A DNA stretch of 41,641 nt from a bacterium. Lineage in GTDB: Bacteria > Myxococcota_A > UBA9160 > SZUA-336. A program made the translations under genes and the position numbers. This document shows positions 3,125 through 34,840 of this stretch, in pieces. Location: assembly GCA_024226335.1 (NCBI GenBank), contig JAAELY010000545.1, forward strand, positions 74,523-116,163. The letters run 5' to 3'. Position 1 is the first letter of the stretch, and the number at the start of each line of letters is the position of its first letter. Below the pieces are notes generated by a model, which did not search any database, had not been told where the DNA came from, and saw nothing but the letters and a program-made list of their open reading frames with translations.

Positions 3125-4684
3125 ATGACCACGATTGCGACCAGCGCCGAGAAGTTTCCAGACCGACCCGCAGTGATCTTCGGCAACGGAGAGTTCACAG
3201 AGACCTATCGGGAACTCGAACAGCGCTCGCGGCGAATCGCCCACGCCTTGAGTTCCGCCGGCCTCTCGCACGGGGACTGCATTGCTGCGTTGATCGGAAA
3301 CTGCAACGAGTTCTTCGATGTGTACTGGGCCTGCCACCGCACGGGGCTGTACTTCACACCCGTCAACTGGCATCTGCAAGAAGATGAGATCCAGTACATT
3401 GTCGACAACTGCGATGCAGACGTATTGATCGCCAGTGCAGAATTCGCGCAGATCGCCAGCCGGGTCGCGCAGCGTGTTCCGCGGGCGAAGATCCTCATCT
3501 CTGTCGGCGGTGAGATCGAAGGCTTCGAAACCCTGGAATCCTTCGTCTCCGGTGCTCCCGAAGACGAACCCCTCGCCGAAGAACTCGAAGGCTCGGTCAT
3601 GTTGTATTCCTCGGGAACAACGGGCAAGCCAAAGGGCGTTCGCCGTGCGCTCCCGAGGGTCCCGGCAGGTGATCCAGCGACGAACATCGCCGCAATCGGG
3701 ATGATGGGCATGTTCGGCATCAGCGAAGATGACCGCTATCTGTCACCGGCCCCGCTCTATCACGCGGCGCCGCTCGCGTTTTCGGCGGCACAACATCGAC
3801 TGGGCGCAACGGCCGTCATCATGCGCCGTTTCGACCCCGAAGAAGCGCTTCAGCTCATCCAGGAGCAGAAAATCAGCGCGTCGCAGTGGGTTCCGACGCA
3901 TTTCCGGCGCTTGCTTCAGCTTCCCGAGGAAACGCGAAACAAGTACGACGTTTCGAGCTTGAAGGTCGCAGTTCACGCTGCAGCCCCCTGCCCTGTCCCG
4001 ATTAAACTGGAAATGATCAAGTGGTGGGGTGAAGTGATCGTGGAGTACTACGCGGGTACCGAGGGTGGCGGCACGCTGATCCGCTCCGACGAGTGGCTCG
4101 AACACAAGGGATCGGTCGGGCGGCACTGGTCGGGCGGTACCATCCACCTACTCGATGAGGACGGCGGGGAAATCCTGAAACCCGACACAGAGGGTGCAAT
4201 CTACTTCGAAGCCCCCGCCGTAGCCGAGGCTCGTTTTCGATATCACAAGGATCCGGAAAAGACCGACAAGACCTATCGCGGCGACCTGTTCACAATCGGA
4301 GACATCGGCTACGTGGATGCGGACGGCTATCTGTACCTGACCGACCGCCAGTCGAACATGATCATCTCGGGTGGAGTGAACATCTACCCGCAGGAAACGG
4401 AAAACCACCTGATCATGCACCCCAAAGTCGACGACGTGGCCGTGATCGGTGTGCCTAGCGAAGAAATGGGCGAAGAGGTCAAGGCCGTCGTCGTACCCGT
4501 TTCCGGCAGCAAGACCGGACCGGCCCTGGAAGCCGAGTTGATCAAGTTCTGCCGCGATTCGATCGCGCATTACAAGTGCCCGCGCACCATCGACTTCGCA
4601 ACCGAAGTACCGCGCACCGAGACCGGCAAGATGGCAAAGCGACGCCTGAAAGAACGCTACTGGGGCAAGGACCGCAAGATCTGA
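3125..4684 (+). CDS. acyl-CoA synthetase (AMP-forming)
   Basis: A 519-residue member of the ANL adenylation superfamily, which activates a carboxylic acid as acyl-AMP and transfers it to CoA. The P-loop-like motif YSSGTTGKPKGV is at 161-172, followed by the adenine-binding YYAGTEGG (about 308), D393 in the GDIGYVDADGYLYL segment, TDR with R408, the hinge region and the catalytic lysine K502 in PRTETGKMAKR. The FadD3/FadD13-like layout suggests a medium, long-chain or ring-derived acid, but the substrate is not determinable. The start has AGGGAGG about 7 bases upstream. It stands alone on its strand and is convergent with the DsbA-fold gene. Confidence 0.93.
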   Translation: MTTIATSAEKFPDRPAVIFGNGEFTETYRELEQRSRRIAHALSSAGLSHGDCIAALIGNCNEFFDVYWACHRTGLYFTPVNWHLQEDEIQYIVDNCDADVLIASAEFAQIASRVAQRVPRAKILISVGGEIEGFETLESFVSGAPEDEPLAEELEGSVMLYSSGTTGKPKGVRRALPRVPAGDPATNIAAIGMMGMFGISEDDRYLSPAPLYHAAPLAFSAAQHRLGATAVIMRRFDPEEALQLIQEQKISASQWVPTHFRRLLQLPEETRNKYDVSSLKVAVHAAAPCPVPIKLEMIKWWGEVIVEYYAGTEGGGTLIRSDEWLEHKGSVGRHWSGGTIHLLDEDGGEILKPDTEGAIYFEAPAVAEARFRYHKDPEKTDKTYRGDLFTIGDIGYVDADGYLYLTDRQSNMIISGGVNIYPQETENHLIMHPKVDDVAVIGVPSEEMGEEVKAVVVPVSGSKTGPALEAELIKFCRDSIAHYKCPRTIDFATEVPRTETGKMAKRRLKERYWGKDRKI

Positions 4685-30728: not shown

Positions 30729-31898
30729 CTAACTGAGCTGGGCCGAGGAATAGCCCAGAATCTCGCGGGCGATGATCAGACGCTGGATCTGACCGGTACC
30801 CTCGTAGATGTCGGTGATTCGCGTATCGCGGAACCACTTCTCCAACAGGTAGTCGTGCGAGATGCCCAGGCTTCCCAGGATCTCGAGACAACGCTGAGTC
30901 GCGGTGCGCGAGACCTCTCCACCCTTGGCCTTGGAGATCGACGCCTCGGTGTTGTTTGCCTTGCCTTCACCCGACATCCAGACCGCCTGCAGAGTATTGA
31001 GCATGCCGACCTCGACGTCGGCCTCGATCTCGATCAGCTCCTGCTGGATTGCGGAGCGCGAGTGCTGGCCGGCAACCCAGTCGATCTCGACGTCCTCTTG
31101 CGCGAGTACGTCCTTGGTGAAATCGAGCGCCGCCTGAGCCATGCCCAGACCGATCGCTGCAACACCGGGACGCGTCATGTTGAAGGTCTTCATGACGCCC
31201 TTGAAGCCGCCACCGCCCTTGGACACCACGTCCTCATTGCCACCCAGAAGGTAGTCACGAGGAATACGACAGTCCTTGAAGACCATGGCTGCCGTGTCAT
31301 CGGCGCGGATGCCCAGCTTCTTCTCCTTGTGGGTCACCTCGAAACCCGGGGTGTCCTTCATGACGACGAAACTCTTGATACCGCCGCGGCCCGCGCTCTT
31401 GTCGATCGTCGCCCAGACCACCACGCCCTCACAACGACAACCGGTGGTCACGAAGATCTTCTCTCCGTTGAGCACCCACTCGTCACCATCGAGCACAGCG
31501 GTGGTCTGCACCGCCTTCGAGTCGGAGCCGCAACCGGGCTCGGTGATCGCCATTGCCAGGGTCGTACCGTTCCAACGCGCCTGCTGCTCGTCGGTGCCCG
31601 AGGCCCGCAGGGCGGCGTTGCCCAGCGCACCGCTACCCCGGCGCATGCGCACGGTGTAGTCGCCCCAGGTCTGACCCGCGGAAACCAGCATCGCCAGGCA
31701 ACCCAGGCTGGTGTTGTAGTCATTATGCTCGTACAGGGAGTACGGGTCAGAAGTGGACTTGGCTTCTTCGAGTTCGTCGGGTGCGAACTCTTCCTCGTGA
31801 TCGTCGTAATAGCGTGCATACTTGCGACAGATCAGCGCCTGCTCGCGCACTGCGTCGAGAACCGCCTGATCAGCTTTGGAAAGTGAGAAATCAATCAT
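30729..31898 (-). CDS. acyl-CoA dehydrogenase (catalytic-Glu subunit)
   Basis: A 389-residue FAD-dependent dehydrogenase introducing the alpha-beta double bond in an acyl-CoA. FAD/substrate motifs are ITEPGCGSDS (119-128), WVLNGEKIFVTTG and FNMTRPGVAAIGLG. The catalytic base is E366 in DIYEGTGQIQRLIIAREILG. The N-terminal 60 residues (YARYYDDHEEEFAPDELEEA) are more acidic than in FadE of beta-oxidation. It lies 16 bp behind a second, shorter dehydrogenase gene. The pair suggests a heteromeric enzyme like those of actinobacterial sterol side-chain degradation, which is inference. Confidence 0.94.
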   Translation of the reverse strand: MIDFSLSKADQAVLDAVREQALICRKYARYYDDHEEEFAPDELEEAKSTSDPYSLYEHNDYNTSLGCLAMLVSAGQTWGDYTVRMRRGSGALGNAALRASGTDEQQARWNGTTLAMAITEPGCGSDSKAVQTTAVLDGDEWVLNGEKIFVTTGCRCEGVVVWATIDKSAGRGGIKSFVVMKDTPGFEVTHKEKKLGIRADDTAAMVFKDCRIPRDYLLGGNEDVVSKGGGGFKGVMKTFNMTRPGVAAIGLGMAQAALDFTKDVLAQEDVEIDWVAGQHSRSAIQQELIEIEADVEVGMLNTLQAVWMSGEGKANNTEASISKAKGGEVSRTATQRCLEILGSLGISHDYLLEKWFRDTRITDIYEGTGQIQRLIIAREILGYSSAQLS

Positions 31899-31914: not shown

Positions 31915-33024
31915 CTAGAGCGCCGTTACGGCTTCGGTGACCGTAAGCGCGCGCGCGTTGCGATACCACATTTCGACGGGGTAGTCGCGAATGAACCCAT
32001 GGCCGCCGAAGACCTGTAGACCGTTGTCCGCCACCTTCATGGCTTCTCGACGGGTGTAGGTCTGTGCCAGCGTCGTCATACGCGTGGCATCGACACCCTG
32101 CTCGAGCTGACTCGCCGCCTTCCAGATCAGATTGCGCATCGAGTTCACCTCGATGTGCATATCGGCGAGCATGAAGGCAATGACCTGCTTCTGGCCGATC
32201 GGCTGACTGAAAGCAACACGCTCCTGGGCGTAGGGGATCGCCAGTTCCATCATGCCGCGAGCCAGACCCAGCGCGAGCGCCGAAGTGCCGAGGCGAAGCA
32301 TGTTCACGAGGCGCGCGGCGTCGATACCGCCGTCACCACCGAGTCGCAGGCCCTTGGGCACTTCGACCTTTTCGAGTTCGATCGTGGCCATGGGTACGGC
32401 CTGGAATCCGAGTGTCTTCTCGGAAGCACAGCTGATCGTCAGGCCCGATGCATCGCGCGGAACAATGAAGGCGTCCAGACCCTGAATCCCTTCGCGTCCA
32501 CTGCGCGCAACCACCAGGAAGTGGCTGGCGCGATCTCCCAACGGAACGAAGCGCTTCTTGCCGGTGAGCACGAAGGTATCGCCCTTGGGCTCGGCGGTCG
32601 TCTGCATATTGGTTACGTCGAACGTGAAGTTCGGCTCGTGCAGAGCCAGTGAAGCCGTGTGGAATTCGGAGGTCGTGAACAGCGGAAGGAATTCCTTCTT
32701 CTGCTCATCGGTACCGAAATCGATCAGTGGCTGAATGAACAGGCTCGGTGCCATGGCAGCCGTCGCCAGCGGAACGTCTCCCCAGCCCAGTTCTTCGAGC
32801 ACCAATGCGTTGGTGATCGGGGAACGGCCGATGCCGCCACCACCGAACTCTTCGGGGATTCCGCCGTTGACCAGGCCCAGCTCCCAGGTCTTGTCGAGCA
32901 GGTCCTGCGGCAGCTCGGATTTCTCGTCGCAATCGCGCGCGATCTCGCGCAGCTCGGACTGCGCGAACTCGCGGACGGTGTCTCGGATGAGCTCCTGCTC
33001 CTCCGTTAGTCCGAATGAGATCAT
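31915..33024 (-). CDS. acyl-CoA dehydrogenase (shorter partner)
   Basis: A 369-residue acyl-CoA dehydrogenase-fold protein. The helical N-terminal domain (FGLTEEQELIRDTVREFA, GGIPEEFGGGG) and the FAD-contacting QVFGGHGFIRDYPVEMWYR are clear. The C-terminus ends RNARALTVTEAVTAL. The Glu aligns with the catalytic one, but the protein stops five residues later and lacks the usual G-T-x-x-I-Q tail that helps hold FAD. It begins 2 bp after the stop of the HxlR/SCP2 regulator gene and precedes the longer dehydrogenase, so the three form one operon. Confidence 0.92.
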   Translation of the reverse strand: MISFGLTEEQELIRDTVREFAQSELREIARDCDEKSELPQDLLDKTWELGLVNGGIPEEFGGGGIGRSPITNALVLEELGWGDVPLATAAMAPSLFIQPLIDFGTDEQKKEFLPLFTTSEFHTASLALHEPNFTFDVTNMQTTAEPKGDTFVLTGKKRFVPLGDRASHFLVVARSGREGIQGLDAFIVPRDASGLTISCASEKTLGFQAVPMATIELEKVEVPKGLRLGGDGGIDAARLVNMLRLGTSALALGLARGMMELAIPYAQERVAFSQPIGQKQVIAFMLADMHIEVNSMRNLIWKAASQLEQGVDATRMTTLAQTYTRREAMKVADNGLQVFGGHGFIRDYPVEMWYRNARALTVTEAVTAL

Positions 33025-33026
33025 TT

Positions 33027-33743
33027 CTAGTCTCCTGTTGGTTTACGCGAAGGCGTATAGGGTTGGTGGAAATACCATGCGATCGAACCGCCCTGACCAT
33101 CCTTGGTCAGTCGGCCATCGCTGAAAGCTTCACGGTCATCGATCAAGCCAATGGCCAGTAGCGTCCAGTCGCGCGCATCGGCCGTGTAGCGGACGTTCGC
33201 GCGCTCGGCGAAACCCTCGTTCACCCGGCAGGCGCCGTCATTGATCGTCACCGTCCAGACGCCGCCGCCCTTCCCTTTCAGGCGCAGCTCGTAGGTGATG
33301 CGTGCGTCCCGCGCGCGCTCCTCGCGTAGCAGGAAAGGCAGAGACTCGACGACGGTCGCAGCCGTGGTCTCGCGAAACGGACCGGAGCCCTTCATGAAGT
33401 TCTGCACCCACCACAGCGCCATCTCGCGAATCAGCGGCTCCAGTGAATGACCGCGCGGTGTCAGGGCGTAGAGGGAACGATTGCCCTGGGGGACCGACTC
33501 CACCAGCTCGCGCTCGGCGAGCTGACGAAGGCGCGTGCTGAGACTGCGCGGGCCGATGCCGGTGCGTTCGCGCAACTCCTGAAAGCCCCGCGCGCCCCCG
33601 AGAAGATGGCTCACCAGAACCAGGGTCCAGCGTTCACCGATCAAGTCGAGCGCGCGCCCGACCGGGTCGAAGAGCGGACCCGATTCCTCCAGCCCGTCGG
33701 CATCCTCCGTAACCGGAGGAGTCTTGGTGGGTTTCGAAGTCAT
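33027..33743 (-). CDS. HxlR-type regulator with C-terminal SCP2-like domain
   Basis: A 238-residue transcription factor. Residues about 25-110 are an HxlR winged helix-turn-helix: DLIGERWTLVLVSHLLGGARGFQEL, GIGPRSLSTRLRQLAERELV and YALTPRGHSLEPLI. Residues about 120-230 match an SCP2-like sterol/lipid-carrier domain (YELRLKGKGGGVWTVTINDG, then ARDWTLLAIGL). Family knowledge suggests DNA binding plus sensing of a lipid or acyl-CoA. It heads the dehydrogenase operon. A palindrome overlapping its probable -10 box points to autoregulation. Confidence 0.88.
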   Translation of the reverse strand: MTSKPTKTPPVTEDADGLEESGPLFDPVGRALDLIGERWTLVLVSHLLGGARGFQELRERTGIGPRSLSTRLRQLAERELVESVPQGNRSLYALTPRGHSLEPLIREMALWWVQNFMKGSGPFRETTAATVVESLPFLLREERARDARITYELRLKGKGGGVWTVTINDGACRVNEGFAERANVRYTADARDWTLLAIGLIDDREAFSDGRLTKDGQGGSIAWYFHQPYTPSRKPTGD

Positions 33744-33774
33744 ACTTCGAGACCGACTCTACGGAAATCGACAC

Positions 33775-33793
33775 CAGTATACAAATGATACTG
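33775..33793. promoter_or_regulatory. candidate operator/promoter of the lipid-catabolism locus
   Basis: CAGTAT (33775-33780) and ATACTG (33788-33793) form a 19-bp palindrome with a 7-bp spacer, between the divergent regulator and LLM genes. On the minus strand it contains TATACT (33781-33776), 5 of 6 to a -10 box, about 33 bases before the regulator ATG. A second small palindrome, ACTGACAGT, overlaps its right arm (33790-33798). Confidence 0.5.
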
Positions 33794-33931: not shown

Positions 33932-34840
33932 ATGAAAATCGGGATCGGCGCAGGCGCAGACGGGCGAATCGATCTGCTTCTCGGAGAGGCCCGGCGTGCG
34001 GAAGCCGACGGTTTCCAGGCACTCTGGATGCCCAATATCTTCGGACTCGACGCGATTGGGGCCCTGACCGTGGCGGGACACGAGACGAACCACATCGAAC
34101 TGGGCACGGGTGTCGTGCCGACCTACCCGCGCCACCCGATGGCCATGGCCCAGCAGGCCCTGACCGCGCAGGCCGCCTCGGGGGGACGCTTCGTTCTGGG
34201 CATCGGGTTGTCGCACAAGATCGTGATCGAAGACATGTTTGGCATGTCCTACGCGCGACCGGCGCGCCATATGCGCGAGTACCTCGAAGTCCTGTCCCCG
34301 CTATTGCACGGCGAAGGCGTGCAGTTCAAAGGTGAGGAGTACCGGGTTTCGGGGGCGCTTCAGGTGGCAAACGCACCTGCGGTATCGCTTCTGGTCGCGG
34401 CGCTCGGACCGCAGATGCTGCGTCTGGCGGGGAGACTCTCCGACGGAACGATCACCTGGATGACAGGACCCCGGACGCTCGAGAGTCACATCATCCCGAC
34501 GATTTCCAAGGCAGCCCAGGAAGCGGGCCGACCCGGACCGCGCATCGTCGCGGGCTTCCCGGTCGTGGTGACCGATGACGTCGACGCCGCGGGAGAAGCG
34601 GTAAACCGCACACTGCAGATCTACGGTCAACTGCCCTCCTACCGCGCCATGCTCGATCGCGAAGGCGCGCAGGGACCTGCCGACGTCGCGATCATGGGCA
34701 CGGCCGAACAGGTCAGATCACGTTTGATGCATTTGCGCGATATCGGCGTCACCGACCTGAATGCAGCCATCGTTCCGATCAACGGACGCAGCGAGCGAAC
34801 CATGGACCTGCTGACCGAACTAGCGAAGGAAGCCCGATGA
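33932..34840 (+). CDS. LLM-class (F420-type) oxidoreductase
   Basis: A 302-residue bacterial-luciferase-like TIM-barrel protein of the subgroup that commonly uses F420. MKIGIGAGADGRIDLLLGEA, GFQALWMPNIFGLDAI, IELGTGVVPTYPRHPMAMAQQ, GRFVLGIGLSHK and LAALGPQMLRLAGRLSDGTI-like segments are diagnostic of the group. The reaction is unknown. The ATG at 33932 has GGAGGAAGG upstream. A short hairpin (CCCGG 33905-33909 with CCGGG 33916-33920) precedes that site. The stop overlaps the start of the enoyl-CoA hydratase-like gene (ATGA). Confidence 0.93.
   Translation: MKIGIGAGADGRIDLLLGEARRAEADGFQALWMPNIFGLDAIGALTVAGHETNHIELGTGVVPTYPRHPMAMAQQALTAQAASGGRFVLGIGLSHKIVIEDMFGMSYARPARHMREYLEVLSPLLHGEGVQFKGEEYRVSGALQVANAPAVSLLVAALGPQMLRLAGRLSDGTITWMTGPRTLESHIIPTISKAAQEAGRPGPRIVAGFPVVVTDDVDAAGEAVNRTLQIYGQLPSYRAMLDREGAQGPADVAIMGTAEQVRSRLMHLRDIGVTDLNAAIVPINGRSERTMDLLTELAKEAR

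What the first reader, a model, noticed from the sequence alone, without database searches (positions are those of the whole stretch)
33027..33793. HxlR regulator fused to an SCP2-like lipid domain, with its own palindrome
A winged-helix domain joined to a sterol-carrier-like domain controls two acyl-CoA dehydrogenases and faces an LLM/crotonase operon. The 19-bp palindrome CAGTAT-N7-ATACTG overlaps a TATACT -10-like box. This looks like a one-component lipid or acyl-CoA sensor with a testable operator.
Basis: partly seen in the sequence, partly recalled or inferred. Interest (0 to 1): 0.5.

Follow-up and report, generated by a model that had tools for sequence, protein, structure and literature searches.

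The report
Self-controlling switch for acyl-CoA dehydrogenases
A DNA-binding protein with a built-in lipid-carrier-like pocket probably switches its own gene and two fat-oxidising enzymes on and off through a short mirror-image DNA site, and that site and gene trio are kept across a whole class of uncultured bacteria.

Summary
Window 33027-33743 (-) encodes a 238-aa protein with an HxlR winged helix and an SCP2 domain. CAGTAT-N7-ATACTG lies just upstream and is the only exact copy in the genome. Orthologues occur in 67 of 90 genomes of the class, Myxococcota MAGs. A 17-bp palindrome, AGTATC-N5-GATACT, precedes the gene at 65 of 66 loci. A matrix trained on 58 sites outside the window's family ranks the window site first, 20.8 bits against 8.9 for the next place. 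Exact consensus sites are almost confined to this promoter: 44 of 46. DNA crystallised with B. subtilis HxlR carries the same half-site, CAGTATC. The downstream acyl-CoA dehydrogenase pair is conserved; its motifs are split between subunits as in α2β2 steroid-type enzymes. Best reading: a local autorepressor sensing a bulky acyl-CoA or lipid; the ligand is inferred. In the window the site overlaps the predicted -35, not a -10. The divergent LLM/crotonase genes are not shown to be targets. The wHTH-SCP2 architecture is already known (EspN), so this is a new variant of a known kind.

The parts
33027..33743 (-). HxlR-SCP2 regulator gene, 238 aa, ATG start
   Evidence: ORF; Pfam; model and fold matches
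33393..33644 (-). HxlR winged-helix domain, residues 34-117
   Evidence: PF01638, E 2.6e-14
33096..33317 (-). SCP2 domain, residues 143-216
   Evidence: PF02036, E 4.7e-6
33775..33793 (.). palindromic operator CAGTAT-N7-ATACTG; the conserved 17-bp core is 33776-33792
   Evidence: exact and unique in the genome; conserved at 65 of 66 loci; found first in the window by a matrix trained outside the window's family
33779..33784 (-). predicted -35, TTGTAT, inside the operator
   Evidence: register shared with relatives; weak consensus match, missed by the generic scanner
33756..33761 (-). predicted -10, TAGAGT, 17 bp after the -35
   Evidence: inference
31915..33024 (-). acyl-CoA dehydrogenase a, beta-like: keeps the motifs expected to face FAD-ADP, lacks the C-terminal segment after the catalytic-Glu position
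30729..31898 (-). acyl-CoA dehydrogenase b, alpha-like: keeps the catalytic IYEGTG segment

Best explanation
The protein is a one-component transcriptional autorepressor. A dimer binds the palindrome AGTATC-N5-GATACT in its own core promoter with its HxlR winged helices and blocks RNA polymerase. This silences a three-gene operon: regulator, dehydrogenase a, dehydrogenase b. The fused SCP2 domain binds a bulky acyl-CoA or lipid, most simply the substrate of the dehydrogenase pair, and this releases the DNA; when the enzyme has consumed the ligand, repression returns. The two dehydrogenases form one composite alpha2-beta2-type enzyme, b carrying the catalytic glutamate and a the FAD-ADP-binding face. 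Shown: domains, operon conservation, operator conservation and near-exclusivity. Strongly inferred: this protein binds this operator, and binding represses. Inferred only: ligand identity, direction of the ligand effect, dimerisation, enzyme assembly.
For: Operator upstream of 65 of 66 orthologues, 0.15% of 1320 shuffled regions at the same score; out-of-sample, a matrix from 58 other-family sites puts the window site first at 20.8 bits (next 8.9), and 5 of 5 further class loci score 22-32. 44 of 46 exact consensus sites in 90 class genomes are this promoter, and none occurs in the 21 genomes in which no copy of the gene was found. The site follows the gene, not the divergent neighbour. DNA crystallised with B. 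subtilis HxlR has the same CAGTATC half-site (PMC7835342 passage). The site sits on the -35 or the -10, as a steric repressor's would. SCP2 fold supported by Pfam and structure matches; SCP2 region as conserved as the winged helix, 31 of 85 against 37 of 95 columns at 90% or more. Dehydrogenase pair directly downstream at 65 of 66 loci, with complementary motifs as described for alpha2-beta2 enzymes.
Against: No binding, expression or ligand data. HxlR of B. subtilis activates rather than represses. The crystallised DNA was optimised by its authors and its centre is one base longer than here. The window's promoter hexamers are weak and the generic scanner missed them. Within the window's family the site degrades: L053 scores only 8.2 out-of-sample. 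Homologues outside the class with the same domains show no AGTATC palindrome.
Confidence: 0.72

Rival explanations
1. The protein is an activator of its own operon (or of both divergent transcripts), as B. subtilis HxlR is for hxlAB.
For: B. subtilis HxlR is a positive regulator whose DNA binding rises with formaldehyde (PMC7835342 passages); EspN, a wHTH-SCP2 protein, is reported to activate whiB6 in the absence of EspM (PMC11005418 passages).
Against: The operator lies on the -35 or the -10, and several loci carry a second, partial copy 22 bp away covering the other box, a geometry expected to exclude polymerase.
Confidence: 0.12
2. The palindrome belongs to the divergent gene's promoter (LLM in the window, rnpB in most of the class) or to another regulator, and this protein acts elsewhere.
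For: The site lies in a divergent intergenic region; rnpB is the usual divergent neighbour, found upstream at 51 of 66 loci.
Against: The site stays with this gene where rnpB is 1-3 kb away or absent, as in all 7 loci of the window's family, and where the LLM gene is absent. 44 of 46 exact sites are at this gene. The half-site matches DNA crystallised with HxlR.
Confidence: 0.06
3. The regulator is a thiol or electrophile sensor like YodB, HypR or HxlR, and the SCP2 domain is a structural or docking module.
For: Known HxlR/DUF24 proteins sense electrophiles through an N-terminal cysteine (PMC7835342 passages). Cys172 (93%) and Cys194 (95%) in the SCP2 region are conserved among 57 sequences.
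Against: The N-terminal cysteine position holds Cys in only 11% of 57 sequences and Asp in the window; the window also lacks Cys194. The targets are acyl-CoA dehydrogenases, not detoxification enzymes.
Confidence: 0.1

Closest known systems
EspN (MMAR_1626 / Rv1725c), mycobacterial wHTH-SCP2 transcription factor (PMC11005418, passages read)
   Same: N-terminal winged helix and C-terminal SCP2 domain; a transcription factor by genetics
   Different: Regulates whiB6 and ESX-1 rather than an acyl-CoA dehydrogenase operon; the passages read give no operator or ligand; its sequence was not compared here
B. subtilis HxlR (7bzd, 7bzg; PMC7835342, passages read)
   Same: Winged-helix fold (7bze Z 14.2) and the DNA half-site CAGTATC
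   Different: About 120 aa without SCP2 domain; formaldehyde sensor through Cys11-Lys13; activator; its crystal DNA has a 6-base centre, here 5
YodB, HypR, QsrR (HxlR/DUF24 family)
   Same: Sequence and fold matches of the winged helix
   Different: No SCP2 domain; they sense through a cysteine that is lacking here (their sensing is from PMC7835342 passages and recall)
HxlR-SCP2 proteins on plasmids of Deinococcus, Methylobacterium and Sinorhizobium
   Same: HxlR above, and SCP2 above or just below, the Pfam cut-off; 28-30% identity
   Different: Different neighbours (dihydrofolate-reductase-family and VOC genes in the two annotated records); no AGTATC palindrome found upstream of the three
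Alpha2-beta2 acyl-CoA dehydrogenases ChsE4-ChsE5 and ChsE1-ChsE2 (PMC11153573, PMC6678751, passages)
   Same: Two adjacent genes that split catalytic Glu and FAD-ADP contacts
   Different: Sequence relation to them was not tested; their PDB entries did not appear in the lists; substrate unknown here

Membership tests
HxlR/DUF24 winged-helix regulators | HxlR domain above the curated cut-off and the matching fold | tested here: met
   53.3 bits against a cut-off of 20.8; 7bze Z 14.2 over 100 residues
HxlR/DUF24 winged-helix regulators | Binds a palindromic operator as a dimer | tested here: inconclusive
   Conserved palindrome with the half-site of HxlR crystal DNA; dimerisation and binding not tested
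HxlR/DUF24 winged-helix regulators | N-terminal sensing cysteine (a feature of the studied electrophile sensors, not of the fold) | tested here: not met
   Cys in 11% of 57 sequences at position 26, Asp in the window; so not filed as a YodB/HypR-type redox sensor
SCP2 domain family | SCP2 domain above the curated cut-off and the matching fold | tested here: met
   27.3 bits against 21.3; 8af3 Z 12.3 over 106 residues, 2yhe Z 14.5
SCP2 domain family | Binds lipid or acyl-CoA | not testable with these tools
   No ligand prediction or assay available
Alpha2-beta2 heteromeric acyl-CoA dehydrogenases | Adjacent genes with catalytic Glu in one subunit and FAD-ADP contacts in the other | tested here: met
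   Motif conservation in 61 a and 56 b full-length orthologues; division as described in PMC11153573. Motif reading by eye, not from a structure
Alpha2-beta2 heteromeric acyl-CoA dehydrogenases | Heterotetramer formation and bulky steroid-type substrate | not testable with these tools
   No complex prediction or assay available

The most novel reading that the evidence does not exclude
A class-wide, dedicated sensor-enzyme module: an HxlR-SCP2 repressor that measures a bulky isoprenoid, sterol-like or branched acyl-CoA with its SCP2 pocket and controls only its own composite alpha2-beta2 dehydrogenase. Its operator has hopped by two helical turns (22 bp) between the -35 and the -10, through tandem intermediates, while the circuit stayed the same.
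Probability: 0.4. Interest if true: 0.6.

Novelty: new variant of a known kind. Interest (0 to 1): 0.48.

Why it matters
SCP2-fused winged-helix regulators occur in several phyla but are almost unstudied; the one genetic study found in the library (EspN) gives, in the passages read, neither operator nor ligand. Here a sequence-defined operator, a single presumed target operon and a presumed enzyme-ligand pair come together, which makes ligand and mechanism directly testable in vitro. The operator's repeated 22-bp moves at one promoter are also a clean natural example of binding-site turnover.

Tried and rejected
Palindrome as chance: rejected. Palindrome as a -10 box in the window: rejected in favour of -35 by alignment. 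LLM/crotonase operon as a co-target: not supported. Of 66 loci, 15 (window included) have any LLM hit at E <= 1e-10 and 4 (window, L049, L053, L054) one at 57% identity or more; in L054 it lies 1.8 kb away. Palindrome as an rnpB element: rejected. YodB/HypR-type N-terminal cysteine: not found. AGTATC palindrome as a rule for all HxlR-SCP2 proteins: not found upstream of three plasmid homologues or of the genome's own paralogue L114.

Technical: one search is a script with an empty seed list; its numbers are void, and one search replaced it. The length-based gene calls were polluted by antisense frames and were replaced by tblastn. My tRNA guess for a conserved upstream stretch found no support in 12 loci (two tRNAs, not followed up); in the 5 loci then scanned it is rnpB. 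One search's hexamer-based labels (23 O1, 41 O2, 1 tie) mislabel at least L055 and L091. The tree with those labels needed 11 changes. For one search I relabelled by start-codon distance; that left out L053, L066, L067, L092, L110 and L113 and set the window's family to O1 by hand, so 60 of 66 rows were counted. The start codons were themselves chosen as the first in-frame start after the operator. Tree and labels were not tested against shuffles.

Not in print: searches of the held library gave no HxlR-SCP2 operator paper; only EspN has the architecture. Subscription papers are mostly not held.

Full report
What is there. The window gene at 33027-33743 (-) encodes 238 aa with an HxlR winged helix (residues 34-117) and an SCP2 domain (143-216), both above Pfam's cut-offs. 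An AlphaFold model from 57 sequences has mean pLDDT 80.9 and pTM 0.65. It matches HxlR proteins (7bze, Z 14.2 over 100 residues, rmsd 2.8) and SCP2 folds: the alkylsulfatase 2yhe, whose C-terminal domain is SCP2-like (Z 14.5 over 107 residues), and human SCP2-L 8af3 (Z 12.3 over 106 residues). The palindrome CAGTATACAAATGATACTG at 33775-33793 is exact and unique in the 5.75-Mb genome; at up to 2 mismatches the pattern gives 45 places against 15 for the reversed control pattern.

Who else has it. In the order, 7 of 11 genomes (own included) match at E <= 1e-10. In the class, 67 of 90 genomes have one match each at E <= 1e-20, among them 38 of 42 of high quality. A profile search of 377 genomes of the phylum gave 68 hits at E <= 1e-30, all in this class. 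Record titles from the genome-contig scan are mostly Myxococcota and 'Deltaproteobacteria' MAGs (65 loci, of which some match only the winged helix). I recall the GTDB class as UBA9160; no call names it. One distant relative (L170, 40% identity, a MAG labelled Klebsiella) has no dehydrogenase pair; its best upstream score is 14.7.

The operon. At 66 loci (65 fetched, plus the window; G055 was left out because its hit lies at a contig edge), dehydrogenase a is the next gene on the same strand at 65; the miss, L075, ends at +694. One of the 65, L082, is weak (27%). Dehydrogenase b follows at 61 (L082 again weak), and at the other five the contig ends first. Across 61 and 56 full-length orthologues, b alone keeps the catalytic IYEGTG-IQ segment, while a alone keeps the KdR-AF and GGHGF motifs and stops at the catalytic-Glu position (motif meaning recalled). 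This is the division described for the alpha2-beta2 enzymes ChsE4-ChsE5 and ChsE1-ChsE2, where alpha binds the isoalloxazine and carries the Glu and beta contacts the ADP-ribose (PMC11153573, passages). So a and b are probably one enzyme. Steroid-like substrates are an analogy, not a result.

The operator. A matrix refined on the upstream regions gives AGTATC-N5-GATACT; 65 of 66 loci score over 12 bits against 0.15% of 1320 Markov-shuffled regions. That count is in-sample and rests on related sequences, so I made two checks. A matrix from 58 loci outside the window's family finds the window site at 20.8 bits, top of the whole window with 8.9 for the next place; it finds six of the seven family loci at 17.7 or more and L053 at only 8.2, with 14.5 the best of 2100 shuffles. 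Five of five class loci not among the 66 score 22-32. Information is 1.7 bits per position in the site and 0.1-0.2 in distant flanks. The one miss, L110, has only 33 bp upstream. The strict pattern AGTATYNNNNNRATACT occurs at 46 places in 44 of 90 genomes, with 5 places for the reversed control. 44 of the 46 are this gene's promoter, counting G089 and G062 where the gene runs off the contig; of the other two, one (G062:C168) overlaps a long ORF and one (G068:C44) lies on an AT-rich contig. None of the 21 genomes in which no copy of the gene was found has a site. The strict pattern misses the window's own family, whose sites are degenerate at the inner positions.

Promoter anatomy. Two arrangements recur. 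In the commoner (42 of 60 labelled rows) the operator's right arm is the -10 (mostly TAGATA), usually with a TTG-type -35 17 bp upstream, and the start codon follows 0-9 nt after the operator, so the message is probably leaderless. In the other (18 of 60, window included) the operator covers the -35 (TTGaAT) and a TA-type -10 usually lies 17 bp on. Several loci (among them L061, L079, L083, L089, L093, L100, L101, L109) have a second, partial copy 22 bp away on the other box. On the protein tree the two states need at least 7 changes. In the window: -35 TTGTAT at 33779-33784, -10 TAGAGT at 33756-33761, ATG at 33743. These hexamers are weak, and a generic scanner missed them.

Why this protein binds this site. 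The site keeps company with the gene, not with the neighbour. rnpB is the usual divergent neighbour (found upstream at 51 of 66 loci, 38 of them directly divergent within 350 bp), but the window's family lacks it (0 of 7), and the operator remains. Independently, the DNA that gave the best crystals with B. subtilis HxlR was CAGTATCCTCGAGGATACTG (PMC7835342, methods passage): the same half-site, with a centre one base longer.

Mechanism. Most likely: apo dimer on the operator, polymerase blocked; ligand in the SCP2 pocket releases it; the enzyme removes the ligand. Shown by sequence: domains, operon, operator, position. Inferred: binding, repression, ligand, dimer. Redox sensing is less likely: the N-terminal cysteine of the studied HxlR/DUF24 sensors is absent, though Cys172 and Cys194 in the SCP2 region are 93% and 95% conserved (window: Thr at 194).

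Known and new. HxlR-SCP2 proteins exist elsewhere (Deinococcus, Methylobacterium, Sinorhizobium), and the wHTH-SCP2 factor EspN has been studied genetically (PMC11005418, passages). The operator, the dedicated operon and the class-wide conservation were not found in the searched library. Hence a new variant of a known kind.

Noticed in passing
Upstream of the regulator in L055-L113 (e.g. L080:7418-7826 -, L087:7280-7713 -): The RNase P RNA gene (rnpB) is the usual divergent neighbour of this operon in the class: 51 of 66 loci, 38 directly divergent within 350 bp; 0 of 7 in the window's family.
   Followed up: partly
Promoters in L061, L079, L083, L089, L093, L100, L101, L109: Two operator copies 22 bp apart, one on the -35 and one on the -10; the position of the strong copy switches at least 7 times on the protein tree.
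   Followed up: partly
L114:6997-7680 (window genome, contig C311): A second HxlR protein with a sub-threshold SCP2 match (19.0 bits, cut-off 21.3) in the window's genome, without the AGTATC palindrome upstream.
   Followed up: partly
L242, about 117 to 101 bases before position 4001: The Sinorhizobium HxlR-SCP2 homologue has a 17-bp palindrome AGTTCA-N5-TGAACT upstream, the same geometry with other letters.
   Followed up: no
window 33935-34840 (+): The divergent LLM-class protein passes NCBIfam TIGR03564 (F420-dependent LLM oxidoreductase; 356.8 bits, cut-off 234.25), which suggests F420 use in this lineage.
   Followed up: no
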